Assembly (NCBI RefSeq): GCF_000003815.2
Contig: NC_049984.1
Span: 217,472-281,471 of the forward strand
Length of the DNA stretch: 64,000 nt
Source of the DNA: Branchiostoma floridae
Taxonomy: Eukaryota > Chordata > Leptocardii > Amphioxiformes > Branchiostomatidae
Direction: 5' to 3'
Positions 10,770 to 35,660 of this stretch are shown one piece after another (the first letter of the stretch is position 1; each line of letters opens with the position of its first letter). Both the position numbers and the translations under genes were made by a program. The notes beneath the pieces are model-generated. The model made no database searches. It was not told the DNA's origin and saw only the letters and a program-made list of their open reading frames with translations.

Positions 10770-11240
10770 GATCAGCTGGCCAGGGCCGGTGTTTTCCACC
10801 CATTGTGGCCCGCGCGGCCAATGGGAGCGCTCCTCCCACAGAACTATTGTTTGTGCTGTCATCTGGGCTTGTGTAACTAACTGCGAGGGTCCGGTGGTTT
10901 ACCCCGAACAAAACGCACTTCGGTCCGGGGCTGTTTGCCCAGCAATCCGCCGGTGTCAGAGCTGTTGGTTCGGCGGAGACCAGAAGCCTATCAACAGCGC
11001 TAACGTGTGGTTGTTTACGCCGCTCGGCCACATTTTATCGTCCGAAGGTGTTAATCATTAAATTATCGACCTGCACTGCCCACCATAACCACCCCAGCAC
11101 CGATCAGCTGGCGGCCTCCTGATTGGCCAGAACTTTAAGCAGGAGGTCGCGACTGGCGCGCTGATTGGCTGATAGTGATGTAATATTAGCGTGACGTCAC
11201 GCGGGGTATATAAAGCGACCCGGATCGAAGTGCGGAGTGT
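10770..11240 (+). promoter_or_regulatory. Maf proximal promoter
   Basis: TATATAAA at 11207-11214 and a palindromic CRE in GCGTGACGTCACGC (core 11192-11199). Inverted CCAAT boxes (ATTGG) lie at 11122-11126 and 11164-11168, with a forward CCAAT at 10818-10822. CGATCAGCTGGC-type words recur at about 10769 and 11100. Initiation is expected about 25-30 bp after the TATA, near 11235-11242. No full Maf recognition element (TGCTGAC..GTCAGCA) was found, because the bases flanking the CRE are GCG/CGC; direct autoregulation through this site is therefore not supported. Confidence 0.75.
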
Positions 11241-11494: not shown

Positions 11495-12367
11495 ATGGCC
11501 GACCTCGTCAACGGCGGCGACATGCCGACCAGCCCGCTCGCCATGCAGTACGTGAATGACTTTGACCTCATGCACTTGGACGTGAAACGGGAACTGGAGG
11601 AGGCGAACCAGGCGAGCTGCATGGTGTCCTCGGGGGTGGCCGCGTCCCTGTCCGGCAGCAGCTCCGTGTGCACCACCCCAATGTCGTCGCCCTGCAGTTC
11701 CGTGCCCTCCTCCCCCGGGTTTGAGATCCCCAGCCCCGTGGACCAGAAGCCCAACATCGAGGACCTGTACTGGATGACGAGTTACCAGCAGCTCAACCCC
11801 GACGCGCTCAAGCTGACTCCCGAGGACGCCGTGGAGGCGCTGATCTCGTCCGCGGCGGGGTACGAGGCTGGGTCGGCGGGACCAGGCTGCGGGCAGCCCG
11901 GCTCCCATCACGCCCTGCCCCCGGCACCGCACCACCACCACCACGGGCCCGGCCACGGGGACGACCACAAGCCGCATCACCACCACCACCACCACCCCGC
12001 CGGCCAGTCCCGGCCCAGGCTGGAGGAGAAGTTCTCGGACGACGAGCTCGTCTCTCTGTCCGTCCGGGAGCTCAACAGGCAGCTGCGCGGCTACAGCAAG
12101 GAGGAAGTGATTCGGCTGAAACAGAAACGCAGAACGCTGAAGAACCGGGGGTACGCGCAGAGCTGCCGCTCCAAGCGGGTCCAGCAGAGGCATCTGCTGG
12201 AGATCGAGAAGCAGCACCTACAGAGAGAGCTGGACGATCTGCAGAAGAAGCTACGAGACACGGAGAAGGAACGCGACGACTACAAGGCCAAGTTCGAGCG
12301 CCTCAAGTCTTACTCCAGCTCGCAGTCGTCCCCGTCCAACCCAAGCAGTCCCGAGTACTACATGTGA
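11495..12367 (+). CDS. Maf: Large Maf bZIP transcription factor
   Basis: Nuclear DNA-binding activator of 290 aa in one uninterrupted exon. The start is ATG 11495 in a good context (A at -3, G at +4). The N-terminal minimal transactivation region is recognisable at residues 11-36 ([16 protein letters not shown]). V30-K31-R32-E33 is a sumoylation consensus. A proline-directed ladder with exact 4-residue spacing (S57, T61, S65, S69, S73) matches the GSK3 phosphodegron of vertebrate large Mafs. Two histidine runs (146-150, 161-167) lie in the linker. The extended homology region runs from F180 to about K209. The basic region has the Maf-specific NRGYAQSCR (217-225; Tyr where most bZIPs have Ala). 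The zipper heptads are L235, L242, L249, T256, Y263, L270. The protein ends SSPEYYM, like c-Maf. The transactivation domain excludes a small Maf. A single pro-orthologue of MafA/MafB/c-Maf/Nrl is likely, but this is inferred. Wwox lies downstream in convergent orientation. Confidence 0.97.
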
Positions 12368-13244
12368 GCCGCGTCGCGCCGTCGGAAGGGTTCGGATCCT
12401 ACACGGCAACACACGCACTAACTAACCAACGGACAGACGGCCGGAGCGACTCACACGCGCACGAACGGACTAACGGACGAACCGACAGGTGAGCTGTCAT
12501 GCCCCTACATGCCCCGCAAACAGCTCCCCCTCGCGGCACGCTCGGAACTGGACACTGTACTTTGGACTCTAGTATCACATAGTAACCAAACGCTGTACAT
12601 ACACACCCTGGACAATTCTGAATCCCCTTTTGGCTGGGAGTTTGACTCTTGGGGGCCCCGATAGTAGATTTAAGAGTTAGCTTTTTAACGTAGCAGAGGA
12701 GTTTTTATTCAGACCAAGTCAGGATGGTTAGTGTTCCTGTGCCCAAGCTGGCATGTCCACCTGAGCTTGTGTTGACTGTACATAGCGGTCCCATATGGAA
12801 ACGGGTACAGCAGGCGACCCCATGTTTCCAGGGCTATTCCTGTATATCTGTTTACATCCGAGAACTTCTAAAAGAAGCTATGAGCTATGTCCAGCTGTGG
12901 TCTGGATATGTAAGTACAGAGAGTATAGTGTGTATATAGGAATATCGTGGCTTCAAACAGCCTGCCTGATATGAACATAACACGACGAAAACGGACTTGT
13001 CCTAACGGGACTCGAGAGTATGCTTTAACGTTGGTAATGAACTAGTCGACCGCTCTGAATGTCTGACAAGAGCTGAACTTTCTTCCACAAGTGACAGGGA
13101 AAGGCAACATCCACGATGCTTTGGAGGAAGAATTTAGAGTCTGCCGCGGAGGCGCATCAGCACTGAGAAAAACAAAAAACAAAAAAAAATCGAAAAAGGA
13201 TAGAAAAAGACACCAAAAAAAAAAGATGCTACCAGGTGAGAACA

Positions 13245-13330
13245 ACAGGAACGGAGGGATTCGAACACCTGGGTCGGACATGGTGACTCTCTAAACCAAC
13301 ACTGAAGAAGGTTCTTGTTGCAACTATGTC
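13245..13330 (-). repeat. Possible tRNA-derived SINE fragment
   Basis: Read on the minus strand, a B-box-like GTTCGAATCCC follows an A-box-like TGGTTTAGAGAG at roughly tRNA spacing. The arms do not form a complete tRNA cloverleaf by eye and no body was identified, so this is a weak call. Confidence 0.25.
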
Positions 13331-13634
13331 TGAACGGACTGGACTTCCCGACAGCGATTGATCTGACGCGATCATGAACTTGTGCCTCGACACAACATAT
13401 TACCATCGAGAGATGTTTTTAGCTATCGTCACAAATTTCTGTCTCCATGATTCCATTGCCAAATGTCTGTGGTCCTTCGAACGTTTCCCAGTTTTGGATG
13501 GGACATTTTGAAAGAGAAGAAACTATAATGAAAATAGAGTTCTATTAATTTGTGAAATGTTTTATGTTGTCCGTTTCTGTTGATCACATGTGACAGACTT
13601 TCCTGTAATCGTAGCCGAAGCGTTCGGAGCTACT

Positions 13635-13640
13635 ATTAAA
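13635..13640 (+). promoter_or_regulatory. Candidate poly(A) signal ATTAAA of Maf
   Basis: The most frequent AATAAA variant, with a GT-rich downstream element at 13670-13702. No AATAAA was noticed between the stop codon and this point. Confidence 0.3.
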
Positions 13641-13660
13641 AGCATGGAAAGACCTTTTAT

Positions 13661-14756
13661 TTTTAACCCTGGTGTTGGTGATCAGTCCCTGTGTGTGTGC
13701 AGGCAGTGGGGGGGAAACAGGATCCGTGTGTTATGTGGTGTGTGCATGACAGCATGGACTGGACCATGGTATGGTCATCCTATAGCTACAACTGTTGGGC
13801 AGTTCAGATAGGGGTTGGTCAGAACTAGAACCAATCACTGAAATCTGAGGAGTGCATTTTCTGGTTGCTCTTATATCTTTTGGCCTGGCTTATCTGTTGA
13901 ACTTCAAGTTTAAGTGGTGTATTTTCTCACTTATTGATGAAATATACCATGTTTAAAATATAATACTACACAACGAACTCACAAAAGTTGCCCCAAACCA
14001 TACCTTTATTCAGGATTCAAAATATCTCATTCCCTGACTTATTGAAATTTTGAAAAGGAAGTTCTGAAACGAAAGTACGTGACCAAAAATCACTTCTAAT
14101 TCCAGCTTGTTGGAGGGGAGTACTTAGCCCAGGCATGGTCTAAAACCAGCTGTCCTCCTCCCCCTGGTGACCTTGGGTTCACCTTGCACTGGTGATGCCC
14201 TGAAAAAGGCAGTAAAACCAGGATCATAACTTCCATGGCTTGTCTAGTTCCACACCCAACCCTTGTTTGAACATGCCAGAAACAACTGCTCTGCTCCTCA
14301 TAAAAATGAAGATCCTTGTGAACTGGTTAGTTCTGATAACACATGGAGCAAGATATGAGTCCTTTTAGTTATGAATACTCGAGTATAGAGTAAAGTAGGG
14401 CATGTAGATTACCCGGGTAACCAGAGTGAAAAAATACTGCACATAATTCAAATGGTGAAAAATTCTCCACCTGTTCATATAATATCTGCTCCCCCATTCC
14501 GGGCTTCTTCAGGTTCTGAAAAATTATAAATTTCGTAGAAACTGACCAAATGGGCTGAAAAATTTGCCAGAAGACTGTCAGTCATAGAGATACAGATTTT
14601 CAACTTGGCTGATGCAAAAAAAAATTATTTGGCAAATTTTAAAACCTCTTTGGCCAACTTCTACTAATTTCTCAACGACCGAATGAGTGGTGGGGTCTAC
14701 TGTACAGTGCACAGAGCTGTAACATTACAAGGCTAAGCCGTGTACTCAACTGGATG
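13661..14756. other. Intergenic, nothing recognised
   Basis: AT-rich DNA without exon-like frames. A short TCAGGTTCTGAAAAATT-type stretch was inspected and no repeat partner was found. Confidence 0.5.
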
Positions 14757-14957
14757 TCTCCAAGCAGATGTTTGTGATTTATTCCTGTCTTTGACACATT
14801 CAGTAATCTTTTCTATTACTGGTATTTTATTGGTTTTAAAAGTTTGCCTCCTACAAAGTAGTATTAACGTTAATAAACCACCAAAATACAAGACTTCTGA
14901 ATGGTCCAAAAACAGGTGCAGAACGAACCAAATCCTTACAGTTACATCTGCTTGGAG
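14757..14957. mobile_element. MITE, CTCCAAGCAGATGT type
   Basis: Ends CTCCAAGCAGATGT and ACATCTGCTTGGAG enclose about 170 bp. The right sub-end GAACGAACCAAATCCTTAC aligns with GAATGAACCAGTTCCTTAC of the element at 27518-27668, so the two are one subfamily. Clean target duplications are not visible. Confidence 0.65.
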
Positions 14958-15009
14958 TTTAGATACCACTGCCAGGTTCTACTCCTAGCCAAGAGGGGGC
15001 TGGATCCCA

Positions 15010-15360
15010 GGCTACCTGCCTAAATGCTACTATATATACTGTATATATTTAGAGCCCAGATGAAGGCAGTACAGCTGAAACCCTTATCCCAGGCTAGTAC
15101 ATGTACTCCTATTTGGAGCCTAGCAGGAAGGCCGGATCCCAGGCTAGTACATGTAGCCCAGAATGGCTGGGTCCCAGGCTAGTACATGTGGCCCAGAATG
15201 GCTGGGTCCCAGGCTAGTACAGTAGTCCTATTTAGAGCCCAGCTGAAGCCTGGATCCAAGGCTAGTACATTTAGCCCAGAAAGGCTGGGTCCCAGGCTAC
15301 TACATGTAGTCCAGAATGGCTGGGTCCCAGACTAGTACATGTACTCCTATTTAGAGCCCA
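15010..15360. repeat. Degenerate tandem repeat, about 35-bp unit
   Basis: Repeated words GCTGGGTCCCAGGCTAGTAC and ATGTAGCCCAGAATG alternate with diverged units across the segment. Related GGGTCCCAGGCTATCTGTCC words occur in the array at 22915-23475. Confidence 0.6.
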
Positions 15361-15475
15361 GCTGGCTGAAGACTGGCTGTGATGACAGGTTGGCAGGTCG
15401 CCAGCAGGCCTGACCCTGGATCAGGGCTGCTCTAACCAACTGGCTCAATCTGGGGAGGCGCCTGTCAATATGCCT

Positions 15476-15736
15476 AACCTGTGCGACTCCAAGTGTACAG
15501 ATATAACCTGTGCCACTCCAAGTGTACAGATATAACCTATGGGACTCCAAGTGTACAGATATAACCTGTGCGACTCCAAGTGTACAGATATAACCTGTGC
15601 CACTCCAAGTGTACAGATATAACCTATGGGACTCCAAGTGTACAGATATAACCTGTGCGACTCCAAGTGTACAGATATAACCTGTGCGACTCCAAGTGTA
15701 CAGATATAACCTGTGGGACTCCACAGTGGGTACAGA
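15476..15736. repeat. 29-bp minisatellite, 9 units, with trimer order
   Basis: Units start at 15476 and recur every 29 bp to 15708 (core ACTCCAAGTGTACAGATATA). The variable triplet before ACTCC runs GCG, GCC, GGG, GCG, GCC, GGG, GCG, GCG, GGG, and two of the GGG units also carry TAT for TGT. This suggests duplication of a 3-unit (87-bp) block. Since 87 is a multiple of three, long open frames appear on the minus strand; they are not genes. Confidence 0.85.
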
Positions 15737-16332
15737 TGTGTTACATGCTGGAACCACTACAGGCTAACACTTCAAACTGTTGTAAACTCATGCTGTCAAT
15801 GGTATAAACTCTGGTCAATGCAAATGTGGAGATAAATTACTGTAAATGTTCAAATGTTCGCAACACTTGGTTTTTACTTTTGGAGTGACCTCTCCAACAT
15901 GAAGTCATGACAGAACAAATATGCATTTCCATTGTATCACTACTGTACTACAAAAGTACCTCAATGTCGAACTGAAAACAATAAAAATATCTATTCCCCC
16001 TCTACAGACACTGCGAAAGTAAGTAGATCTACAGTATTTCATTTACACACACCCTCTCCTGTTATAGCTCAGGAAAGTGTATGATTGACAGGGATACAAA
16101 CAACATATGTTCTGTGTACAGAGTTGTAGTTACTGATCCACCCCTGGGATCTCAGATCCCCTGAGATCTCAGCAGATCCAAAACAATCAATAGCAGAAAA
16201 TGATATCACTCTCTGGGACATGGCAATACAGGCCACCCCCCTCTGCATGGAAATGAGCTTGTTGAACTGCAGCAGAAAAACATGCCATAAACCTGTCCTG
16301 ACTCGTTGACCCCAAGGTACAGGTCAGGGGAG
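15737..16332. other. Intergenic, nothing recognised
   Basis: Mixed-composition DNA with no exon or repeat structure that could be supported. Confidence 0.45.
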
Positions 16333-16488
16333 CTCCAAGCAGATGTGTGGCTGCCTCATTTTGAGGTCTTCTCTACATATTTGTTGTGGTTCACCTTTTT
16401 AGAGGGAATATTAAGGTTTATCACCAGAGGACTGTAAAATGCTACAAAATGACTGAAAAACCAGCCTTAGCCATACATCTGCTTGGAG
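16333..16488. mobile_element. MITE, CTCCAAGCAGATGT type
   Basis: 156-bp element with ends CTCCAAGCAGATGTGTGGCT and AGCCATACATCTGCTTGGAG, non-coding between them. Same terminal signature as the elements at 14757 and 27518. Confidence 0.7.
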
Positions 16489-18041
16489 ATGGGTCGCTGA
16501 GGGTCAGTGGTGGTTGCTATGGTAGCCGGCTGTGAGGATCAGATGACAGCTCCAGGACAGCTGGTGAAACAGGGGAGCCAAATTAAGAAATATGAGGGAT
16601 GATATGACAGGTCCCCTCTTCAACTTCTGTTCAATAAACAACCAACTTCATTCTTCTGTGTCACCCGAATGAATAGAAGTTCCTCTGCAGAATACTTGCT
16701 AGGGATTCGCATTCGTCTACCAGGTAAATAATGACTATATTGATAAAGTGGAAGAAGTTTTGCGAAAACTTTCCTGGACTTTCCACCCTTTTGGCTGTTA
16801 AGAGGTCCAGATCAGTAGTTATAATCCGTTACCTGTCCTGTACAACAGGAAAGACAGTTGGACAGTTGTTCTCAGCTTTGGAGTGGAGGAAAACAAAAGA
16901 ACAGTCCTAACCATAGAGCCATGCTGTCCCTGGGGAATCTTCTGTTTTTCTTCAGTCCTCCAAGGAGCTAAAACAACTCCTTATTCCTCTGACCTTCTGT
17001 TCGTGTCTCTTCAAAATTTCCTTCAGATAGCCAAGTGTTCAAGTCTTCCCCAAGTTCACTCCACTATTATTAAAATGTAAGGAAGCTATGCTGAACTCTT
17101 CCTGTAAAACTGTTTGGAAAATAAAGAAAGAAGCGTGTTTGAAAACATTTTGCCAGCCCGCCCCTGGTAATGCCCTGATGTCCCATGAGAGGCGATCAGT
17201 GTTGGAGTTCAGTGGAGCGTGCTCTACTGATGAACTGGAACTAATAAAGCCTCAACACACAAATTTTGCCTCTGTGAAAACATTTTGCGGCCCTCTATTT
17301 TAAACTGTAAAGAAGAAACATAAACTGAAGTATAGTATAGTATAGTACCCACTCATTGTTTGTGAACCCTAACTTTTGGGGCTATATTTGCTATTGGGCT
17401 ACCTATTAAGCTTAGCTTAGTTCTTGAGACTGTATATGCAATTAGCCCTCGGGCATGATTTTGCAAATAAAACACATCATTAAGCTGATGGAAATACATT
17501 TTCAAAAGTTTCAGGTCATCATATGTTATCAAGAAGTTACCTTTTGTAGAGTATACCTATACAAATGAGCCCAATAGCCGCTGTATAAACAAGTCTTCCC
17601 AACATGCACTTACTATATCCTGAAAGATCAGTGCCCACTATACACCACACCAGCTCAGCCATAGTCTGGCTCTGATTATGGTGTTGGGCTTCAGTGAATT
17701 ACCAAACTGGAAACAGCCCATCCTGGTGGCTGCTGGAGGCTAGAGATGACAGACTGGTGAAACCTGGGGAGATGGTACAACATAGCCTCCAACAGGCTCC
17801 TTGGGCCGGTAGGATTCTGATGATGATTTTGTTGCACTCCCTCTATGAGTAGATCTATAGGCAGACATATTACTTAGGGGTGAGGAACATAACACTTTCC
17901 TTTAATCTATGCAAAATTAAGCAATTCTCCTCCTATTGTTTAAAGTCAGACTTTTCCAGTCAGCAGACAATTATTTTGTGTAGCTGGAGAGAGGTTACTA
18001 GTAGACTCCCAGCGGGGTAGCTGATTATGAGGGGGTGGGTG
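16489..18041. other. Intergenic, nothing recognised
   Basis: No exon supported. A short TATAG tandem lies at about 17332-17346. Confidence 0.45.
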
Positions 18042-18043
18042 TA

Positions 18044-18242
18044 CTCTCCAAGCAGAGGTTAGGCTCCAGCTGTTTTTTTTTTACATTTCTTTTAATCGTT
18101 TTTATCTGGCTTTCTATATTGTATTGTGTCTTGTATTGTTAGGTTTTGACAATACAAGATACGAGATAAAATAGAAAGTAAAATGAAAACGACTGAAAGA
18201 AACGTAAAACAAACAGCCGGAGCCTAACCTCTGCTTGGAGAG
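18044..18242. mobile_element. Full-hairpin MITE, CTCTCCAAGCAGAGG type
   Basis: 199-bp element flanked by TA (18042-18043 and 18243-18244), with ends CTCTCCAAGCAGAGGTTAGG / CCTAACCTCTGCTTGGAGAG. The two halves are complementary over almost the full length (for example TTTCTATATTG against CAATAC..ATAGAAAG). It is the best-preserved copy here and defines the TA duplication of the family. Confidence 0.85.
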
Positions 18243-18244
18243 TA

Positions 18245-18769
18245 GATGGTTGGGTATCAATGGGAACTTACAATAAGTTACATTGTATTGCTGATGTAAC
18301 AGCTACATGTTGCAACATGTTTCTACATGCCTTTCAAAGCTATTGGAGTTGACAGGAGGTTTGGGAGCAATTGTCATCAGCCAGCCCAGCTGGAGGAGGG
18401 ACGTGTGTCATACATCCTTATTTTCATTTTCTTTTTTGCTTATAACAATCTTTACAAGCAACAGCCACTGACTGAGGGTTTTACAAAGTCAAGGACCCCA
18501 AAAGAACAAACAAACCAGAAGTGATCAAACATCCTGAGTACCGAACAAAACCACCTCAGGCCTGGCCTGCCCCCGGAGACCAGGAAATTGGAGCTATTAA
18601 AGCGTCAGAGTCGCCGCTGTGATCGCTGAGCTATTGTCAACCATCTCTTGTACAGGTGATGGATACAGATGTCTGACAGGTCTGCCTGTCAATCAATCAT
18701 TCAATCATTCACTCAACTATTCACTCACTCAATCAATCATTCTGTTTTTAAGGACTGATTTTAAATACG
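18245..18769. other. Intergenic, short STR only
   Basis: An AATC/CATT-type simple repeat lies at about 18690-18740; nothing else recognised. Confidence 0.45.
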
Positions 18770-18956
18770 GATCTTACCCATAGATAGGAATTTAATATAG
18801 GGATGTAATCATGCATTGTTGTTCTATTTTTGTAACTATGCTGTTTGTCGGATTGTATGTTTGTGAAGTTTCCCAGCTTTTCCTAAAAAACAGGGCATTA
18901 GCCCTGATAGTAAGTAATACCTGGTTAAAAAGAATAAATGAATGAATGAAATGAAG
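18770..18956 (+). mobile_element. LINE-like 3' end
   Basis: TTGTAACTATGC and TGAAGTTT, then the stem CAGGGCATTAGCCCTGA and a (AATGA)n tail, match the interrupted copy at 4780-5035. Only the 3' end is present. Confidence 0.5.
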
Positions 18957-19640
18957 TTATGATCTTTGCCATAGTTCCTTCAGCTTGTCAGTGAGTTTGT
19001 TCAATCAAACTGGCTGTTTTTTGTTGTATGTACCAAAATTGCAACACACCCACTTCTCTCTGAGAACCAAGACGTTACATTGGTACAGCCCACTTATTCT
19101 TCTTCCAAGGAGCATTAAGAACCCCAAAATGAGCACATCTGCGCCCAGCAGGTGGAGGAGTCTGCTAAGACGTCTTGGTGCGCCAAGACAAACGTCTGGA
19201 AGGAGGCGGTGTGTGCAGGTGTTACTTCTGGCTGGTTGGTGCCCAGTCAAGGCTGACTCGGACCTGTTTGTGCTAAAAGGTGCCGCCTCGCTGAGCAGGG
19301 CTGGGCGGGAAGGTTGTTAGACAGGACTGTTAGGTCATCTGTAAGCAGACGGGCGGTTAGCACTAGTTTTACACGTCTTTTACAGCATTTGGTACATCTT
19401 TTCAACTGATACACTTTATTTCTCTCTTTGCTCTGCCAAAAGACAGCTTTGGCACATATTTTACAGGGATGTTCTTTATTGGTCTTTTTCCAGTCATGTG
19501 ACATCACCCCCTTTAAAATCTTTAATACATGGAACATATTTTATCCAACTCCTTAAGCAACTTTTAAGACAAAAAATATGTTTCAAGAATCAGTGTTTTT
19601 TTTAAGCACACTTCATCTTCCTTCACTAATGTATTATCCA
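18957..19640. other. Intergenic, nothing recognised
   Basis: Short open frames without domains; no repeat partner identified within the window. Confidence 0.45.
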
Positions 19641-19852
19641 TTCACTCTCACTCACTCACTCACCACTCACTCACTCACTCACCTCTCTCACACATTCACT
19701 CACTCACACTCACTCACTCTTACTCACTCACACTCACTCACTCACTCACTCACTCACTCACTCACTCACTCACCACTCACTCACTCACTCACCTCTCTCA
19801 CACATTCACTCACTCACACTCACTCACTCACTCACTCACTCACTCACTCACT
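19641..19852. repeat. (CACT)n microsatellite with internal duplication
   Basis: About 210 bp of CACT units. The interruption CACCTCTCTCACACATTCAC occurs twice, about 100 bp apart, showing block duplication within the array. Confidence 0.85.
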
Positions 19853-22204
19853 CTGTCCAGCTTGCTTGGAATTGTTCCATCTCACCAAAAGAAGTGAAAA
19901 ACAGGCCGAAGCCTTGCATCTGCTTGCAGATTACACAAGACTCTTTTGGTCTCAAAACAGAAAAGAACAACAGCCACAGATTTGCACAACAGCCCTAAGC
20001 ACAAACTAGCCACTTGTTTCCACAACATGGTGTGTGTTTATCCCTGCCTTTATCGTTATCCTGTGACGTGCAATTAGCCCCCAGGCAAGGGTCTGCCGTA
20101 CCAGTCATCTTTCATCCATCATTTCTGTGGCAGGGTGAAAAGTTTACGTCTGCTCATTTAGCACTCAATTTTATCAAATCATAAGTTTTTAAGAGCAGAG
20201 ACGAAATTCTGATCAGTTTTCTAGTTTTCTGCAACAGCAAAAATTGAGCCCACAATGTACAATTCAGGGTCTCAGACAGATATCACATTCTCCAGCCCCT
20301 TCAAATTTGTCTGGAAGAAAAAGAACTTTTGATTCCAGTACAAGAAGAAGTAGGAAGGTTTCTTTTTTACCAGTAAGGAAACACACCTGCTACAGAAGGC
20401 ATAAAAGAAACTGTCTTCAAAACACAGAAGGTTTGACACAGAAAGAAACCATTTGAGATGAACTGACATAGACTAGTAGAACAGGGACACTCCTTTCTAT
20501 TATAAATCTGCAAGAAGATGTGAGGATCCGGCCCATTTTTGCAAAAAGCACTGAGAAAGGACAACTTTCCTAATCCGGTGAGGAAAGTGTTTGTAAGCCG
20601 TGCACAGACCTGTGACACTGGAGATGGGCTGTCTTCAGCTTTAAATTCTCTCTGTCTCAGTCTTTGTTGGGGAGCCCATGTTGTAAATTCCCTCCATTAA
20701 ATCTGTCATTTCAAGCTTAAGAAAATGCATTTTCATATCAAGAAGTTCAGATTTTGGGGATGGACAGGGTGAAACTTTTGTCCGTCCTGGGACATGAGGG
20801 GTCATGAGGGAGGAAGGGACGGTCCTAGACTAGCTAGAGATAGTCCTGCACTGGAGCTGTAATAACCAAGGCTCTGACAGGAGTTCCCCACTTGTCAATC
20901 TCAGGGTACAAAGTACACCAGTAGTACAGCCCTGCTGCCTAAAGCTCGACACGACTCCAGAAAACACGTCTTCTGCACAAAAACAATTTCCTCCAGTCTC
21001 TGCACAGGAATGCCGGCGGCTCCAAACACTTTTATTGGGAAATTCCTGCAGGAATGAGATTTGATGGAAGAGAGTGCACCGGCAACTGCGGGCGGAGAAC
21101 CCAGCTAACAACCTTCCCGTGGAACAGGAGGGTTAATGAGGCAGCACTGATGTCTGTACAATATAGACTGGAAGTTTCGAACCAGGAGGGGGAGGTGTAG
21201 TGCCCTCCCTTCACAGGCTCTACAGGCTTTTGTTAGTTCTTTTTCTGACAGAGGCAGCTTACAAGAAACAGAGAAACTGAGAACTATCTAGACTGATTTG
21301 CCATTTAAGAAAAAGCACATCATAAATCACCCAAAAGCCAGTTTGATAGGGAGTGCTAAAGGGACTAGAGCTGGAGGAGTTGGCTTCTGCTTGTAGACAA
21401 TTTTTTATTCGCACCCATGAAAACTCTCCAAGCAGAGGTTGAACGAGGAGACTGTAAGCATAACACCTTCTTCTGATCATGACTTTGACTGTTGGATGGA
21501 CAGCTGTCAGACAGAGCGACAGGTCAGAGGAAGGTAACAATCTCTGTTTCAAAAGTCATCCATGCGAATCCCATCAGGCCTTGTGTTCATCGTGGTTGGT
21601 GGGACAAGCTGAGCTGCCAACTGTGCTTCAGGGCACGATGAACTCAACTTGTTTTTCAGGCAAAGTGATGAAATATACTCCTATTGTACCAGACACTAGC
21701 TAATAACTGCTGTGCTGTCTTCAGTTTTGTAATTTTTTCTTTCCCACTCATCGTTTGGGAGCCTATGTTGTTAATGTTCATTGTTAAAACTGACATTTGA
21801 AGATGAAATGTAATCAGAAAACTGTATGGTAAGCAAGAGGGGGTTGGGGAAGTGGCCAAAAAACAGCTGGAAGAAAGTTTTACGATGTTATCTTGGTCCA
21901 ACTGTTTTTGCAGAAGCATCCCAAAGTCAAGTTCAAACCGCACCAGCGACTCTGTCATGTCATGTCGACATTTCCATTGTGTCTGAAGGACGCGATCGTC
22001 AAGGTCATCTGCGTGTCCTTGGGAAGCGCTACACAGAGTGTTCCCTACAGGAAACCTGACCATCTGACAGGGAGTCACACACACACGTGGCTTCTCTCTG
22101 ACCTTGCCAGGAGACTCACAGCTGACAGACAAGTTTGCTTAGAGATAAAATTGTAACCTCCAAACAGACGTGGAAAGACAAGGGTTCCTCAAGCTCCCAG
22201 TTCC
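19853..22204. other. Intergenic, nothing recognised apart from a stray MITE end
   Basis: A solitary ACTCTCCAAGCAGAGGTT end lies at 21424-21441 with no partner found. No coding exon is supported on either strand. Confidence 0.45.
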
Positions 22205-22208
22205 ATAA

Positions 22209-22366
22209 TCTCCAAGCAGATCGTAGGGTAGCATAAGGTAGTATCAAAAGCTGACAGAGGAGTGAAGCCGGCCTAGGAGTGTGTACGCGACCGTCTGACT
22301 CCCTTTGGCCGGCTATACTCCTCTGCCAGACACTATCTTATGGCACCATAGGATCTGCAGAACACC
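22209..22366. mobile_element. Degenerate palindromic MITE
   Basis: CTCCAAGCAGATCGTAGGGT, GCATAAGGTAGT and AGAGGAGTGAAGCCGGCC on the left pair with GGCCGGCTATACTCCTCT, ACTATCTTATGGC and CATAGGATCTGC on the right. The final CTTGGAG of the right end is lost. Confidence 0.65.
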
Positions 22367-22914
22367 AAAGTATGGAATTGTCCTAATCAGCATAATGATT
22401 TTGCCATTGCAGAACTGCTCGGAGGCTAACTAAACTCCACCACAAAATCACTTCAACTTTGCAAGCTGAAAGGAAAAAATCACAGTCACTTCCCTTTTTG
22501 CTGCAGATGTTGCCCTGTGTAACCAAGAGTTGGAAACAAAGTTGCATGATGTTACATGATAACAAACTTCAGAGTGAGTATTAAACTTTTATACTGTTAC
22601 TACTGTAGAAACAAAAATAAAAAATATCCTCTTTGGAAGCAGATAAAAAATGCACAATCACATCTGAGTCAATTTGTTGTCCTTGAATGACTCTTGATAT
22701 CGGAAATTTTGCCAGTCAACAACTACAAGTCCACAAATAAAGCGTTTCCTGTCAAGAAAACACTTTCCTGTTTGCTCCAGTGACCTACAAACTGACTTTC
22801 AAAGTCACAGAGGAGACAAAAGTGACCTTGTACTTCTGCACAAGGACAGAGCGTTACCCCTAGCAACGGGATGCAGAGTTACACAATGTCTACTGTTTGT
22901 GTTAACCAACCATT
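22367..22914. other. Intergenic, nothing recognised
   Basis: No exon, motif cluster or repeat could be supported. Confidence 0.45.
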
Positions 22915-23475
22915 ACCTCAGAAGGCAGGGTCCCAGGCTATCTGTCCTGCAAGACAATCCGTGTTGAAACCAACCAGGGGTGAAATGTATGGAGCTCTGC
23001 CATTGTTCCAAATAAAAACATGTACAACAAGAAGGCAGGGTCCCAGGCTATCTGTCCTGTAACACAATGCAAGTACCATAAGGAGTTTGGGTCCCAGGCT
23101 ATCTCTCTTGTAATAGAACTCCTGCTGAAGCTAACCTAGGATGAAATGTGTGAAGCCTTACCCTAGAGTTTCAGTCTATCCCCCTGTTAAGTGTAATAGA
23201 ACCCCTGCTAACATATGGAACCACTCCTAACGAGGCTGGATCCCAGACTACAGACCCTGTAATAGAGCCCCTGTTGAAGCTAACCAGGTATGAAATCTGT
23301 GTAGCCTCAGAAGCCTGGATTCTTGCCTACCCTGCCTGTAATAGAACCCCTTGTTGAAGCTAACCAGCTATGAAATGCATGGAGCCCTAAGGAGCCTGGA
23401 TTCTTGGCTACCCTGCCTGTAATAGAGCCCCTGTTGAAGCTAATCAGCTATGAAATGCATGGAGCCCAGCCATTG
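22915..23475. repeat. Degenerate tandem array, about 80-bp unit
   Basis: The phrase TAATAGARCCCCTGTTGAAGC recurs at 23111, 23260, 23339 and 23420 (a degenerate form near 23190), each followed by an AACCAGSTATGAAATG-like word. GGGTCCCAGGCTATCT words dominate the left part. Confidence 0.65.
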
Positions 23476-24018
23476 TCTCTGTTCCGCCCCGCTGAGCACA
23501 CTGCACAAACCATATTGGCAGCCAGCTGATGGTTGTGAAGCCAACACGCTGCTAACTTATTGTTGGGCCCAGCATACATGACTTCAGCTTTACCAGCGAC
23601 AGGGGCATTGTATTGTTAGGAAAAGGCTTCTCGGGCTACAACAAATTATTTCTGTGGTTCTCGGAAGAAAAGGTTGAAAAGAAACGTAAGGCTGGGAGAA
23701 AATTTGAGGGGACTCTGTTCAACTTTACACCCTGAAACGGTGTGTACCGTACATGGTATAGACTTTTCCTCTATCTTAGACACGATTAAAGTTTCAGTTC
23801 AGCATTTTTGTTTTTCAACCCCAAGAAACAGCAAGTTTAACTGTTGTGTATGTTCAAGTGATGTGAGAGATGTCAGAAGTGGAAGTGAAACATCAGTTCG
23901 GTTCTGAGAAATTCTGAAGCTCAGTAATAAGGAACATCTGCATTGATATCTGTCTGAAGAAACCAACCGAGCAAGACATCTGCTAGGGAAGGTGTCCTGT
24001 GCAGAAATACTCCTGGCT
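23476..24018. other. Intergenic, nothing recognised
   Basis: No exon supported. Confidence 0.4.
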
Positions 24019-24321
24019 GCAGACACCACTTGTTGTGAGTCCCAGCCTGCACCTAACCTCTGCTTGGAGAGTAGCAGACACCACTTGTTGTGAGTCCCAG
24101 CCTGCACCTAACCTCTGCTTGGAGAGTAGCAGACACCACTTGTTGTGAGTCCCAGCCTGCACCTAACCTCTGCTTGGAGAGTAGCAGACACCACTTGTTG
24201 TGAGTCCCAGCCTGCACCTAACCTCTGCTTGGAGAGTAGCAGACACCACTTGTTGTGAGTCCCAGCCTGCACCTTACCTCTGCTTGGAGAGTAGCAGACA
24301 CTACTTGTTGTGAGTCCCAGC
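24019..24321. repeat. 55-bp tandem array built on a MITE end
   Basis: Units begin GCAGACACCACTTGTTGTG at 24019, 24074, 24129, 24184 and 24239, with a partial unit at 24294. Each unit ends with CCTAACCTCTGCTTGGAGAG plus TA, the exact right terminus of the CTCTCCAAGCAGAGG MITE family. Units are nearly identical (one C to T change in the fifth, one C to T in the sixth), so the array is young. Confidence 0.9.
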
Positions 24322-24491
24322 TGTTAGCGGAGTCTGGAGACCTGCCAGGGGGTCAGAGGTCATCAGCAACCCTGCTGCCTGTCAGGTAATAGCCAGGGCC
24401 TGGGGGACCAGGTAGGGCAGCACTAATAAAGTTTGCTGGTTCTGGGGCTTAGAAGCAATTGTGCTGAACTGATGGAATTTGAAAACAGATA

Positions 24492-24698
24492 CTGTAAATG
24501 CATTTAAATTCGCGGGGATTTAATTTCGCGGTAGCGAGAAAAAGACTTTTCGCGGTGGATTTAATTTCGCGGTAACACCATAGACTGCAGTCTAATACCA
24601 TAATAGAAAAATGTTCGCGGTGGTTTTAAGTTCGCGGTGAAGTGGTCACCGCGAAAACCGCGAACATTAATCCACCGCAAACATTTCTGCATTTACAG
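24492..24698. mobile_element. MITE with CTGTAAATGCA termini and CGCGGT repeats
   Basis: 207-bp element with ends CTGTAAATGCA / TGCATTTACAG, flanked by TA (24490-24491, 24699-24700). The interior has six or more TTCGCGGT words and a hairpin (GTTCGCGGTGGTTTT against AAAACCGCGAAC). TA duplications suggest a Tc1/mariner-type transposase supplied in trans. Confidence 0.8.
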
Positions 24699-24765
24699 TA
24701 ACAGAGGGAGAGTGCATATGTTGGAACATTGGAATTGCAGAGTGAACGACAGAGAAAGTTTTCTA

Positions 24766-25250
24766 ATCTCCAAGCAGATTCCTCCGGTGGCATAAAACAG
24801 TAAGATAAGCTGGGGAAGGACTTCAGCCGGCAGAGGGGTAAAATTGGCCACCGCGGGCACCGTAGCTTCGTGAAATGTTGGGTAAATCGACATCAGCGCC
24901 CCCCTCCCCACTGCACTTGCCTCCCGTCGCATCGTGCTCCGTCGGACGTTTTGCTGTTGTTTTCCTTCAGTACGTAGTCAGTTATTGACACCAAAGAAAC
25001 AAAAAAAGATCCCCAAATGTCACAGAAAACACAATGAACTCTTGCAGCCGACCGAGACGGGATCCCTGGCCCCGCACGCCCGGAGTAATTAGCACCTTCT
25101 TCCTAACGCAGTTTGATTGCCTGATAATTGCCTTTGACCAGTGCGTTCTGTTGCAGATTCCGCGGTGGCCAATTTTACCCCTCTGCCGGCTGAAGTCCTT
25201 CCCCAGCTTATGTTACTGTTTTATGCCACCGGAGGAATCTACTTGGAGAT
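24766..25250. mobile_element. Long-TIR non-autonomous element
   Basis: The left arm (24766 to about 24865, ATCTCCAAGCAGATTCCTCC then GGTGGCATAAAACAGTAA) is mirrored by the right arm (about 25155-25250, TTACTGTTTTATGCCACC then GGAGGAATCTACTTGGAGAT). The arms are about 95 bp, flanked by TA. The loop of about 290 bp has no transposase. A long open frame crossing the right arm (25034-25597) is a by-product. Confidence 0.8.
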
Positions 25251-25252
25251 TA

Positions 25253-26702
25253 AAAGTTTTCCTCCTAGTCATTTGTTCTCATCTTGGAGTTGCTGCAACA
25301 CTGTCCGTGAACCAAGCGAATGACTTAGTGAGGCCCTGCACCAGTGGAAACACTGCATGTGTTGTACAAGAACAGTTGAAACCCAACTCGCCTGAAGGCA
25401 AAACTGAAACTGTCTGCTGGAAAACAATGTTTGCCAAAAGTTATTCAAACATCATTTCTGAAAATCATGACTGTAGAACCAAAAATGTATCCTCTATAAA
25501 GGCTGGCAAGAAATATTACTTATTTGGGAAAAAGATAACGAAACAGCATTATTCCTCTTATCCGAACTGTATGCTATGGTTTGAAAATATGAAATAGTCT
25601 CAAAAACATGTTTGCTGAACATTAGGCTCATGCCTTGAGAAGTAAAGCTGTAATAGTTCTTTGAATTAAAAAAAAGCAAGAACATATTAGAGCCTGTCCC
25701 TATAAGTTATGTACTTCTGAAGATCAGTCTTCCTCCTTCCTTCAGTAGAGCCCTATTTAATAATAAGTGAGGAGAAAACATCACCAAACTTCAACAGACA
25801 ATCCGGCCTCCGGGCACTGCTAGGGAACAACATTTGCACACAAAAGACTGGAGGGTAGCCTGGGGGACTGGGCAGGCTTCAGGGCAGCGTCACGGCTGGG
25901 TGATCGCTGGGTACAGCCTGAGGGGCCTGCAAGGCAGGACTTCAGGCTAGGATTTTAGAGCCAAAATGAACACTACATCAGTTGTAAGCTAAACAAACAA
26001 GTAGTAAAAACAGCAGGTACTTATTCATGACTGTCATCCTCTGGTTTATGGTTTATCTTCTATTGACTGGGACTCTATTAACACTTACACTATAATGGAG
26101 GGGTGAGGTTTATTGGTCTTTTGTGGTATTGTTATTTAATCTGATTATGTCTTGAAAGTGTATTGAACATTTTGAGATACAAAAACAGTCTTAGTAGAAA
26201 AGAGCACAGACGAATTTCCTAATTGAAAGAGTCATACTTTTATTTGGAGCTAAAGTTCACATTGCCCAAGACAGTCTGTTCAAATGACTACATGGGCATC
26301 TTGTACTACAGCTTTGAATTTTATCTACAAAATCTCCCATTTCAAATGTTTAGAGAAGCATTTTCTATTCTTTTCTATTCTAAAACATCTATGGCTTTGA
26401 ATGGCACAAACCTTCTGTGATTTAAACTATGCTACATTGGGATGCTTTAAATGATATTAAAAAAATGACGTAGTTTCCATGATAAAAAAAGTTTGCTTGC
26501 ATGATAAAAAAGTTTTTACGATGACAAAAAACTTAATTTCATTTTTATATTTCCTCTTTATTGCACACATAATGATGGATATGTTAAGCATAAGTTCACA
26601 ATGTAGCTTGTGTTTAAGGAATGATCAGCAGAAATAAATAAAAGCAGCTAACTACCCTACAGCTACAGACAGAACCATCACGGACCTCCACACATATCTT
26701 AG
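25253..26702. other. Intergenic, nothing recognised
   Basis: AT-rich. The word ATGATAAAAAAGTTT is repeated around 26479-26535. On the minus strand AATAAA occurs near 26558 and could serve Wwox, but no GT-rich element follows. Confidence 0.4.
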
Positions 26703-26704
26703 TA

Positions 26705-26855
26705 CTCTCTAAGCAGAGCATGATGGGGAAAATTGTGACCTTTTTCTTAATAACATATGCCATCTTTTTCTGTCAGTTGGTGGGGATAGCTGACAGGAAA
26801 ACATGGCCTATAAGAAAAAGGTCACAATTTTCCCCATCGGCCTCTGCTTGGAGAG
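26705..26855. mobile_element. MITE, CTCTCCAAGCAGAGG type
   Basis: 151-bp element flanked by TA (26703-26704, 26856-26857). Arms GATGGGGAAAATTGTGACCT / AGGTCACAATTTTCCCCATC are perfect complements. Confidence 0.8.
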
Positions 26856-26899
26856 TAGTATCTCAACAGTTTCCCTTTACATCGTTCTGTTTTTCCCTA

Positions 26900-27118
26900 T
26901 CCTCTACCAGGCTCCGCGGATCGGTGTGGTCTGATAGTGGAAATTGGACAAATAGAGTCAATAGTACGCTAGGGGAGTCGGGCGTACGCTAGGGGAGTCA
27001 GCCGGCCAGTGAGGAGATAACTCCTCTGGCCTGCCGACTCCCCAAGCGTACTATTGTCTTGACTCTATTTGTCCAATTTCTACTATTAGACCACCGATCC
27101 GCGGAGCCTGGTAGAGGC
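26900..27118. mobile_element. MITE, GCCTCTACCAGG family
   Basis: 219-bp element flanked by TA (26898-26899, 27119-27120). Ends CCTCTACCAGGCTCCGCGGA / TCCGCGGAGCCTGGTAGAGG; arms contain TAGTGGAAATTGGACAAATA and its complement. The stem includes a small direct duplication of GTACGCTAGGGGAGTC. Confidence 0.8.
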
Positions 27119-27517
27119 TAGTTTTTCCCCTGAGAAGCGCAGAACCGCCCAGCTGAGTTGGTTCGGCCCGGCAGCCATTGTTCTCAGCACAATACAGCTC
27201 CAGTGACACCCGGCTGACCTTCGCCTCAAACCATGCAGAATGATGTTTTCTCCTGCAGACTCCAAACAGCAGCAGTTTACATGTCATCGTAGTCACATAC
27301 AAACATACGTCCTGGACGTTACAGTCCTGGGGAAAATGTTGGAAATCATTCACTATGAACCACCAGTGTGGAAGCAGACAAACTCAGATGTCTGAGGCGA
27401 TTAAAAACACATTTATCTCCTAGCACGTCATTTCACCCAAGGGCACAAACCCTCCCCCCCTGTCCAATGGTACGATCCATGTGTCATGCAACAGACAGAC
27501 ACAAACCAACCATACTA

Positions 27518-27668
27518 CTTATCTCTAGGCAGATATAGCGATCGGACGAATTTTATATCCATTTTTACAACATTTACACGTAACACCCGTTTCTAGTATT
27601 GCACTTTTCAGACTTAAACGTTGCAAAAACAGACATGAGAATGAACCAGTTCCTTACATCTGCTTGGA
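27518..27668. mobile_element. MITE, CTCCAAGCAGATGT type
   Basis: The right end CCTTACATCTGCTTGGAG is intact and the left end TCTCTAGGCAGATA has diverged. The sub-end GAATGAACCAGTTCC aligns with the copy at 14757-14957. It lies in what is probably the Wwox 3' UTR or just beyond. Confidence 0.55.
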
Positions 27669-27727
27669 GGTTAGAAAACAACAAGCTTCTGTCATCATCT
27701 TATATCCAAGCAGATGTGAGGCTTCAG

Positions 27728-27958
27728 CTATAGGCTGAATTTGCTGGTCCTGGCCTGCAGCATGCGCTCACTGATGTCACACAGCCCCGCCGTGACGGGG
27801 GGCGCTATAGGCTCAATTTGCTGGTTCTGGCCTGCAGCATTCGCTCGCTGATGTCACACATCCCCGCCGTGACGGGGGGCGCTATAGGCTGAATTTACTG
27901 GTCCTGGCCTGCAGCATGTGCTCACTAATCTCCCACATCCCCGCTGTGACGGGGGGCG
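27728..27958 (-). repeat. Three tandem copies of the Wwox C-terminal coding tail
   Basis: Downstream of the Wwox stop, units of 76-78 bp repeat the last 17-18 codons plus stop and a GC-rich spacer (CGCCCCCCGTCAC.GCGGGG). On the minus strand the stops lie at 27882-27884, 27806-27808 and 27728-27730. The copies read [34 protein letters not shown] and [17 protein letters not shown]. The period is not a multiple of three, so readthrough would not join them in frame. They are probably part of the 3' UTR. Confidence 0.85.
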
Positions 27959-28147
27959 CTACAGGCTGAATTTGCTGGTTCTGGCCTGCAGCATGCGCTC
28001 ACTGATCTCCCACAGCTCGGCGGCGGCTCTCTCGTTCTGTCCGTCCGGCGAGGGGATGCAGCGGCAGCAGTTGTTGAAGTACATCCCGCCGATTCCCTCG
28101 AGCTCCCGTGCCGTCCCACAGTACACACTCGTCGCAGCGCCCTGTTG
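27959..28147 (-). CDS. Wwox: Wwox last coding exon (WW-domain oxidoreductase C-terminus, partial gene)
   Basis: Minus-strand exon of 62 codons plus stop, beginning after acceptor TTTCCTGTGTCCGCTGCAG (CAG at 28150-28148). It encodes [20 protein letters not shown], then [14 protein letters not shown] and a tail [18 protein letters not shown]. This is the C-terminal end of the short-chain dehydrogenase domain of WWOX, a tumour-suppressor adaptor with two WW domains before an SDR domain. The [11 protein letters not shown] signature is specific to WWOX rather than to retinol dehydrogenases. Human WWOX likewise ends with an exon of about 62 codons. Upstream exons (WW domains, SDR cofactor and YxxxK sites) are not visible within the 36 kb to the window end, apart from what gaps may hide. 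The gene is convergent with Maf. The 3' end is odd: the C-terminal tail is tandemly repeated after the stop. Confidence 0.92.
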
Positions 28148-28164
28148 CTGCAGCGGACACAGGA

Positions 28165-28199
<35 letters not shown>
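28165..28199. repeat. (AATC)n microsatellite at the Wwox acceptor
   Basis: About nine AATC units, read as TTGA on the transcribed minus strand, 17-51 nt upstream of the last-exon acceptor. It therefore occupies the branch-point window. Confidence 0.9.
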
Positions 28200-28298
28200 G
28201 ATGTAATAGATAAATCAATAGATAAATCATTAGATCAAACAGTTGATCATTACATCAAGTAATAGCTTAATTGATCCAATGATCAAATAGATTAATCA

Positions 28299-28326
28299 AT
28301 ATATATATATATATATATATATATAT
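28299..28326. repeat. (AT)n microsatellite
   Basis: Fourteen AT units, followed by further AT/GTAT-rich DNA to about 28365. Confidence 0.9.
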
Positions 28327-28499
28327 GCTTGCTTATATGATATATATATGTATGTATATATGATAATCAATCAACCAATAGATCAATTTATATGTCAATC
28401 ATTCACATTCATCAATAAGACAAAAGCTAGGGACTACATGATAAAGCATACAGGAGACCTGTCTACAGACTGCAGGGGGTAATCAACAGCCTCGTTTAG

Positions 28500-28770
28500 T
28501 TTGCACCATTAAAACCCAGGGGTCTGCTTGGGGCAGGGGGGTTTGCCTGGAGCATGGGAGTGGCCTGGGGCAGGGGGTGGCCTGGGGTGGGGGAGAGGAG
28601 AGCAGAGGGATGGCTGACACTGATGGAGTGAGTGAGAGAGGGACTTGTAGAGGAGAGATGGTCGACTGATGGAAGGCATGAAAGGACTTGTGGAGGAGAG
28701 ATGATTGACACTGATGGAGTGAGGGAGAGAGGGACTTGTGGAGGAGGAGAGAGATGGGTCTACGCTTGAA
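28500..28770. repeat. GA-rich imperfect tandem repeats
   Basis: Recurring TGATGGAGTGAG and GAGAGGGACTTGTGGAGGAG words, preceded by GGCCTGGGGCAGGGGG-type words. It gives long low-complexity open frames on the minus strand that are not genes. Confidence 0.6.
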
Positions 28771-28894
28771 AGAGAAATCTCTTGGGACACATGCAGAAAG
28801 CAGAAGCCGTTTGCGCTGGTCGTGATGAGTGATAAACCTGTGAGGAAACACAGGAATGATGGGAAGCGATGGGTCGGCGTGTGTCGGAGAGACA

Positions 28895-29130
28895 ATGTCG
28901 TGCGATAACCATCGCCTGGCCGCAGGTGAGCCGCCCAGATAACGCCGGCGCGGGAAACGTGCGCCGCTCCCCGCCCCGCGCCAGTCACCACCAGATACAA
29001 GTCAATGGATTCAATAAGTTTCCCCACAAAAACCCCATTAGCCTCCTTTGTGGGAGCGGGACAATGGGCCTGTGTGCGCGGAGCGCGGCTCATGAATGTG
29101 AAAGGTGGCGGAGAGGGACCCTGTTCTGGG
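28895..29130. promoter_or_regulatory. Candidate conserved regulatory island
   Basis: GC-rich island in AT-rich intron with unique-looking sequence. It carries Sox-like CCTTTGT (29045-29051) and ACAATGG (29061-29067) and a GATA word (CAGATAAC, about 28934). Inference only; it would need cross-species conservation or open-chromatin data. Confidence 0.3.
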
Positions 29131-29689
29131 GTTAATATGTGGGTAAATACAGCACATTGACTCCACTGGGCCAGCCGCGCACAGGCCCTCTCTTACACAG
29201 ATGCTACCGAGATGTTCCGATACTCCTGGCCAGATAACCGGTCCCTACAGGAAGACGGCACCTTGAGCTTCTTCAGACAATGTCTTATCTCTGACCAGGA
29301 AGAAGTTATGAATAAAGGAATGTGGTGTGATAGCTGGAAAAAGTATAAATCAGAAATGAAGACGATACAGAACATATCTGATAAGTGCTCCCTAGAGGCA
29401 GACAGACGTTACCGGAACACATTCAGCCAATGTCTCTATCTGTGACCAGGTCAGGAAAGAATTTAAGGAGACTGCATGAACTCGCTATTAGTGATGTTAC
29501 CTCTGCCCGGAGATAACAGGAAAAGTTCGGGCAAAAAATGGAATGATAGAGAGTACCGTAAAATCATTTACTTCTGCCATGAACTAGAAAATCACATGTA
29601 ATACAGTGATGGACAGCCACTCCAGTCCTGGGGTATGGTAAGTAGTGCAGTAGTTAGTCAGTTGTAATGTAGATGTAACAGAAGAACAG

Positions 29690-29945
29690 TAACTGTTGTA
29701 ATGTGGATGATTGAAGCTAGACTTGTACACTGTTGTAACAGAAGAACAGACTTGTACAATGTTGTAACAGGAGAACAGACTTGTACAATGTTGTAACAGA
29801 AGGAGAGTTGTAGTGTGGATGTTTGAAGCTCAGGAGGGTTAAGAGTTTATATCGTCCCAGTATCAGTGGTGCCCCAAGTGTGGATGTTTGAAGCTCGGAA
29901 GGGTTAAGAGTTTATATAGTCCCAGTATCAGTAGTGCCCCGGCCA
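29690..29945. repeat. Two short tandem arrays
   Basis: A 29-bp unit containing GTTGTAACAGAAGAACAG and ACTTGTACAA repeats about three times (29730-29800). After it a 65-bp block (GTGGATGTTTGAAGCTC, AGTTTATAT, CCCAGTATCAGT) occurs twice, at about 29815-29880 and 29880-29944. Confidence 0.7.
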
Positions 29946-30357
29946 GCAGGGGTCTAAGTTTGGACATGAATGATTTATCCAGGAGTGTTTATTCAGTATT
30001 GATGTGGGTTAACCAGGCCTCAGCTCAGGCCCAAAATAAGTGTGAGGTAGGCGGGGGCCAGGGAAGCGGCATGGCACACATAGCCGGCATTCTGACACAC
30101 GACTGTCCGAACGCGCCACGCCCAATCACACACGCTCGCGTAAATCCCCGCCAACGAGATGGGTCAAGTGCACGCTGCTACGGCCGCGAATGTTCCCGTG
30201 CTCGAAACGTTTTGCTGGAGAGGCTGGGATGGACAGAGGGAGGAAACGAGAACAGGAGACAAGCCTCCACCTGGATGCATACAGGTTCTGGGGACTCAGT
30301 TCTAATAGCAAGTTGGGGTACCGAGCTCGATCGATCAATGTTCCCTTTGTTTTTTTT

Positions 30358-31301
30358 NNNNNNNNNNNNNNNNNNNNNNNNNNNNNNNNNNNNNNNNNNN
30401 NNNNNNNNNNNNNNNNNNNNNNNNNNNNNNNNNNNNNNNNNNNNNNNNNNNNNNNNNNNNNNNNNNNNNNNNNNNNNNNNNNNNNNNNNNNNNNNNNNNN
30501 NNNNNNNNNNNNNNNNNNNNNNNNNNNNNNNNNNNNNNNNNNNNNNNNNNNNNNNNNNNNNNNNNNNNNNNNNNNNNNNNNNNNNNNNNNNNNNNNNNNN
30601 NNNNNNNNNNNNNNNNNNNNNNNNNNNNNNNNNNNNNNNNNNNNNNNNNNNNNNNNNNNNNNNNNNNNNNNNNNNNNNNNNNNNNNNNNNNNNNNNNNNN
30701 NNNNNNNNNNNNNNNNNNNNNNNNNNNNNNNNNNNNNNNNNNNNNNNNNNNNNNNNNNNNNNNNNNNNNNNNNNNNNNNNNNNNNNNNNNNNNNNNNNNN
30801 NNNNNNNNNNNNNNNNNNNNNNNNNNNNNNNNNNNNNNNNNNNNNNNNNNNNNNNNNNNNNNNNNNNNNNNNNNNNNNNNNNNNNNNNNNNNNNNNNNNN
30901 NNNNNNNNNNNNNNNNNNNNNNNNNNNNNNNNNNNNNNNNNNNNNNNNNNNNNNNNNNNNNNNNNNNNNNNNNNNNNNNNNNNNNNNNNNNNNNNNNNNN
31001 NNNNNNNNNNNNNNNNNNNNNNNNNNNNNNNNNNNNNNNNNNNNNNNNNNNNNNNNNNNNNNNNNNNNNNNNNNNNNNNNNNNNNNNNNNNNNNNNNNNN
31101 NNNNNNNNNNNNNNNNNNNNNNNNNNNNNNNNNNNNNNNNNNNNNNNNNNNNNNNNNNNNNNNNNNNNNNNNNNNNNNNNNNNNNNNNNNNNNNNNNNNN
31201 NNNNNNNNNNNNNNNNNNNNNNNNNNNNNNNNNNNNNNNNNNNNNNNNNNNNNNNNNNNNNNNNNNNNNNNNNNNNNNNNNNNNNNNNNNNNNNNNNNNN
31301 N
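30358..31301. other. Assembly gap (944 N)
   Basis: Unknown sequence. Open frames spanning the Ns are artefacts. The bases just before it include a polylinker-like 15-mer (30316-30330) and a T run. Confidence 0.99.
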
Positions 31302-34925: not shown

Positions 34926-34929
34926 AAAT

Positions 34930-35370: not shown

Positions 35371-35389
35371 AAAACTACCAACATTAATC

Positions 35390-35560: not shown

Positions 35561-35660
35561 CTTTCCCTGCTCCAGGATGTCCCAGCTGATGGATGGATGG
35601 AGTTTGGGGCAAGCCGGGACCTGGTTATCATCCGGGTGTCACTGGTCTGTTGTTACCACC

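What the first reader, a model, noticed from the sequence alone, without database searches (positions are those of the whole stretch)
11495..28147. Convergent Maf-Wwox linkage conserved with human 16q23
Maf (+) and the last Wwox exon (-) face each other tail to tail about 15.6 kb apart. In human, MAF lies just beyond the 3' end of WWOX, also convergent. This would be linkage kept since the chordate ancestor, which normally signals regulatory interlock: WWOX introns hosting MAF enhancers.
Basis: partly seen in the sequence, partly recalled or inferred. Interest (0 to 1): 0.8.

Follow-up and report, generated by a model that had tools for sequence, protein, structure and literature searches.

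The report
Amphioxus Maf–Wwox tail-to-tail gene pair
In an amphioxus genome the regulator gene Maf and the last exon of Wwox sit tail to tail, neighbours as they are in humans, so the pairing probably dates to early chordates; whether Maf's control switches hold it together remains to be shown.

Summary
The window is from a Branchiostoma (amphioxus) genome. It holds a complete, intronless large-Maf gene (11495-12367, +) and the last coding exon of Wwox (27959-28147, -), convergent and 15.6 kb apart. The exon is 97% identical to the C-terminus of annotated B. lanceolatum WWOX, has a clean splice acceptor and starts at the codon where human exon 9 starts (recalled). No other Wwox exon was found in the ~34 kb to its right, so the last intron is very long, as in human (recalled). 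Maf and WWOX lie on contigs of equal length in B. belcheri, in a B. floridae x belcheri genome and in 5 of 6 vertebrates that the hit lists let me check; for B. lanceolatum the listed lengths differ and the case stays open. A B. belcheri gene model carries Wwox's last exon plus pieces of the same interval in the same order. In vertebrates WWOX is already published as an alleged bystander in the MAF genomic regulatory block. The addition here is that the pair predates the vertebrate genome duplications. Regulatory interlock is the best reading but untested: no vertebrate DNA or chromatin data were available. Linkage outside chordates could not be tested.

The parts
11207..11214 (+). TATATAAA box, candidate Maf promoter element
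   Evidence: Read directly; 288 bp upstream of the ATG.
11495..12367 (+). Maf, single coding exon, large-Maf transcription factor, 290 aa
   Evidence: Pfam Maf_N and bZIP_Maf; MafA and MafB PDB chains; Branchiostoma relatives.
22844..24444 (-). Stretches of the Maf-Wwox interval matching, in order, the tail of B. belcheri model Bbelb_203230: 24444-24313, 23950-23876, 23074-22844 (overlapping 22976-22905); a weaker piece at 27221-27174
   Evidence: tblastn: four pieces at 31.6-38.5 bits exceed the best of 200 dinucleotide shuffles (25.8); the piece at 27221-27174 (25.0) does not.
27727..28016 (-). 77-bp tandem repeat, 3.8 copies, covering the end of the Wwox coding exon and its 3' flank
   Evidence: TRF; extra partial copies of the C-terminus.
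27959..28147 (-). Last coding exon of Wwox, 62 codons plus stop
   Evidence: tblastn; database match; acceptor site.
28148..62537 (-). Presumed last intron of Wwox (about 34 kb or more), no other Wwox exon found
   Evidence: No further credible WWOX match; holds N gaps.

Best explanation
This is the amphioxus copy of the convergent Wwox-Maf neighbourhood of the chordate ancestor. A large Maf gene existed before the vertebrate genome duplications with Wwox tail to tail beside it; after the duplications Wwox stayed beside the MAF copy, as far as the listings show. The most likely reason it lasted is that distal control elements of Maf sit in the Wwox-Maf interval and in the very long last intron of Wwox, so that breaks there would cut Maf off from its enhancers; Wwox is a bystander. 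Inferred: that the pair was inherited and not formed twice, and that enhancers hold it.
For: Gene identities and orientation. Equal contig lengths for Maf and WWOX: B. belcheri 4,546,047 (tags Bbelb_203250 and Bbelb_203230, close neighbours if tags rise by tens, a convention recalled) and B. floridae x belcheri 20,224,093. Six vertebrates had a Maf- or Maf-like-named protein and a WWOX, both with a contig, in the listings; 5 of 6 share the contig length (Varanus, Pelodytes, Scyliorhinus canicula, Narcine, Rhinatrema). Five vertebrates had a MafA- or NRL-named protein and a WWOX with contigs: 0 of 5 share it. Tree: the amphioxus Mafs fall in none of the MAF, MAFA and NRL groups. The B. belcheri interval is collinear with the window. 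Vertebrate precedent: WWOX as alleged bystander of the MAF block, with conserved noncoding elements (passages).
Against: No enhancer, contact, or noncoding element shared with vertebrates was tested. A scan for the Maf response element TGCTGACTCAGCA (motif recalled) found 0 sites at up to 2 mismatches against 2.0 expected. Sinocyclocheilus rhinocerous has Maf-like and WWOX on different scaffolds, both under 1 Mb. Annotated B. lanceolatum WWOX (P0121) is on a 24,230,189-base contig, while the longest contig listed for the window's own Maf cluster is 28,086,088; the cluster's second contig is not shown, so this case is unresolved. The documented human MAF enhancer is upstream of MAF. Human position and orientation of MAF and WWOX, and the exon 9 boundary, are recalled. 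Equal contig length shows neither distance nor orientation.
Confidence: 0.6

Rival explanations
1. The linkage is ancestral but passive: such genomes rearrange slowly, a convergent pair with a long intron is rarely split, and no regulation is shared.
For: Nothing here shows regulatory elements. The human MAF enhancer in the passages read lies upstream of MAF. The scan for Maf response elements was empty.
Against: In zebrafish both maf copies, one of them on a chromosome without wwox, are surrounded by conserved noncoding elements, and elements around wwox are attributed to maf. WWOX is on the contig of Maf-named but not of MafA- or NRL-named genes in the listings, though passive loss would give this too.
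Confidence: 0.33
2. The exon is an isolated segmental or retro copy and the full Wwox gene lies elsewhere.
For: No other Wwox exon found in the ~34 kb to the right; the window exon differs from B. lanceolatum WWOX at 2 of 62 residues; the contig lengths listed for B. lanceolatum WWOX and the window's Maf cluster differ.
Confidence: 0.04
3. The pair came together independently in amphioxus and in vertebrates.
For: None found.
Confidence: 0.03

Closest known systems
Vertebrate MAF genomic regulatory block with WWOX as alleged bystander (PMC2745767, Synorth 2009; passages read)
   Same: The same two genes linked.
   Different: The passages cover human and fish; the word amphioxus occurs once, in the reference list. 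Here the pair is seen before the vertebrate duplications, at 15.6 kb, and conserved noncoding elements shared with vertebrates are not shown.
Metazoan microsynteny kept by cis-regulation (Irimia et al. 2012, recalled; not held)
   Same: A developmental regulator next to an unrelated gene with a long intron.
   Different: Whether that paper's tables list Maf-Wwox could not be checked.
Human 16q23 WWOX/MAF translocations in myeloma (PMC6558388, PMC8656811, PMC5715138; passages)
   Same: Breakpoints hit WWOX and affect the neighbouring MAF.
   Different: There another locus (IGH in t(14;16)) drives MAF; it says nothing about native MAF enhancers in WWOX.

Membership tests
Large Maf transcription factors | Maf_N domain plus Maf-type bZIP | tested here: met
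   Both Pfam models above cut-off.
WWOX | C-terminal exon sequence and boundary | tested here: met
   97% to annotated B. lanceolatum WWOX over 62 residues; acceptor at human codon 353, boundary recalled.
WWOX | WW domains and short-chain dehydrogenase domain on upstream exons at this locus | tested here: inconclusive
   Not found in the window; listed for the annotated Branchiostoma proteins P0121 and P0123. The own genome could not be searched.
Genomic regulatory block | Developmental target gene and bystander gene in conserved linkage | tested here: met
   Window itself; same contig inferred from equal lengths and species names.
Genomic regulatory block | Conserved noncoding elements in the bystander's introns and the interval | tested here: inconclusive
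   Within Branchiostoma, collinear similarity in the interval; the intron was not compared, and no vertebrate DNA was at hand.
Genomic regulatory block | Elements act on or contact the target promoter | not testable with these tools
   Needs chromatin or reporter data.

The most novel reading that the evidence does not exclude
The MAF regulatory block, with enhancers inside the last intron of Wwox, was already working in the chordate ancestor more than 500 million years ago (date recalled), and the giant last intron of WWOX that lies in a human fragile site grew out of this ancient enhancer-bearing intron.
Probability: 0.35. Interest if true: 0.7.

Novelty: new member of a known kind. Interest (0 to 1): 0.45.

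Why it matters
It gives a compact invertebrate version, with 15.6 kb between the genes, of a human locus that spans over a megabase (recalled) and is broken in myeloma. If elements in the amphioxus interval or the Wwox intron drive Maf, the origin of the MAF regulatory block and a reason for WWOX's long last intron become testable in one small region.

Tried and rejected
Retrocopy or chance exon: rejected on the acceptor site and the database matches. Further Wwox exons in the window: apart from the exon and its repeat copies, matches to WWOX were E 0.046 or worse; the best of them, at 11054-10935, lies left of Maf and has a stop in it. Human neighbour DYNLRB2 (neighbourhood seen in a figure legend): no credible match in the window, best E 0.23. 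Maf response elements: none. Structured RNAs: none at gathering score. Linkage outside chordates: the WWOX hits include nine records named for molluscs, a brachiopod and chelicerates, but no Maf row named for those species is in the lists (120 of 1341) or (120 of 299), so it stays open; no row is named for a hemichordate or echinoderm (some rows carry no name).

Papers: ten full-text searches were run. Those joining WWOX or Maf with amphioxus (6, 27, 28) or WWOX with microsynteny or regulatory blocks (10, 19, 46) gave only PMC2745767 as a paper on this linkage, judged by the listings; I did not open the other listed papers of those calls except passages of PMC6292497, in whose text the word WWOX does not occur. 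Searches listed 20 of 59, 20 of 28 and 20 of 255 papers. Supplements could not be read.

Full report
The window belongs to a Branchiostoma genome. Its Maf protein (290 aa, 11495-12367, +) is 90% identical to the Maf-like protein of B. floridae x B. belcheri, and B. belcheri Bbelb_203250 matches at 79%; the window's own protein is cluster P0001. Pfam finds both Maf_N and bZIP_Maf. The species was not given; the Wwox exon is closest to B. lanceolatum.

The Wwox claim is right. Residue 353 is, from memory, the first codon of human exon 9 (c.1057), and the window exon begins there after a good acceptor. The exon has 62 codons and a stop, as the human one does (recalled). In 45 of the 76 proteins the tail from this point (found by its QGA motif) is exactly 62 residues; the other 31 differ in length or lack the motif. 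Annotated WWOX of B. lanceolatum (P0121) and of the hybrid genome (P0123) match the exon at 97% and 90% over all 62 residues. Their other residues find nothing credible in the window: the best is E 0.046-0.52 at 11054-10935 (-), left of Maf with a stop inside.

The stretch to the right of the exon therefore looks like one long last intron. N runs cover 1,537 of the 34,390 bases from 28148 to 62537. Beyond a 100-N gap, 62657-64000 is a copy of 59634-60977 at a constant offset of 3023, 100% identical in every block from 62738 on and over the 300-base copy starting at 62657. This is most likely an assembly overlap, so I count about 34 kb and not 36 kb. Human intron 8 is about 780 kb (recalled).

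Is the linkage real and shared? The own genome could not be reached, so I used the contig lengths printed beside protein hits. Maf and WWOX have equal contig lengths in B. belcheri (4,546,047) and in the hybrid (20,224,093). Of vertebrates with a Maf- or Maf-like-named protein and a WWOX, both with a contig, 5 of 6 agree: Varanus komodoensis, Pelodytes ibericus, Scyliorhinus canicula, Narcine bancroftii, Rhinatrema bivittatum; Sinocyclocheilus rhinocerous, on scaffolds under 1 Mb, does not. Peromyscus was dropped for want of a Maf contig. With MafA- or NRL-named proteins 0 of 5 agree (Leucoraja, Stegostoma, Ambystoma, Engraulis, Pimephales; the Pimephales contigs are under 5 Mb). MafB could not be checked this way. 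I matched the lists by eye; they are partial (120 of 1341, 76 of 76 and 120 of 299 hits shown), and equal length suggests the same contig, not distance or orientation. For B. lanceolatum itself the listed lengths differ: 24,230,189 for WWOX, and 28,086,088 as the longest for the window's Maf cluster, whose second contig is not shown. I leave that open.

A second, independent sign comes from a faulty-looking gene model. Bbelb_203230 (P0124, 241 aa) starts with Wwox's last exon and continues into residues that match the window's Maf-Wwox interval at 27221-27174, 24444-24313, 23950-23876 and 23074-22844 (overlapping a second match at 22976-22905), all on the same strand and in the same order, with stops in several of the window's pieces. 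Of these five matches four score above the best of 200 dinucleotide shuffles of the interval (25.8 bits); the one at 27221-27174 (25.0) does not, as 5 of the 10 best shuffles shown reach it. So in B. belcheri too, the 3' end of Wwox appears to run into the same DNA on the way towards Maf.

A tree of 34 Maf rows, picked by name from the proteins held, puts the three amphioxus sequences together, outside the MAF group (99/98), the MAFA group (100/99) and the NRL group (100/100). The deep order is unresolved, MAFB is not recovered as one group, and tunicate and arthropod branches are long. Three MafB-named fish rows fall in the MAF and NRL groups, so source names are not fully reliable. This fits a Maf from before the vertebrate duplications, with Wwox retained beside the MAF copy. 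That amphioxus has only one large Maf was not tested.

[quoted passage not shown] Myeloma papers describe breakpoints in WWOX beside MAF (PMC6558388, PMC5715138 and PMC8656811, passages). A urate study places a tested kidney enhancer about 300 kb upstream of MAF (PMC6348267, passages), the side away from WWOX (orientation recalled). Of ten full-text searches none listed a paper that I could recognise as reporting the pair in amphioxus; the library lacks most subscription journals, and supplements could not be read.

Verdict: observation confirmed; linkage since the chordate ancestor well supported, with the gaps named above; regulatory interlock plausible but not tested here.

Noticed in passing
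window 62538-64000: After a 100-N gap, 62657-64000 copies 59634-60977 (offset 3023, 100% in the blocks checked), with small differences right at the gap: probably an assembly overlap and not a real duplication.
   Followed up: yes
window 27727-28016: A 77-bp tandem repeat has grown out of the end of the Wwox coding exon, leaving three extra copies of the last codons and stop in the 3' flank.
   Followed up: partly
P0124 (Bbelb_203230) and P0003 (Bbelb_203250): Both B. belcheri gene models look faulty: one joins Wwox's last exon to intergenic DNA, the other extends Maf into its upstream region (matches at 10765-11160).
   Followed up: partly
window 36135-37807: A 46-bp satellite of about 36 copies lies in the presumed Wwox last intron.
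   Followed up: no
window 24019-24321: A 55-bp tandem repeat, 5.5 copies at 99% matches, lies in the Maf-Wwox interval: probably recently expanded. Part of it touches the best B. belcheri match at 24313-24444.
   Followed up: no
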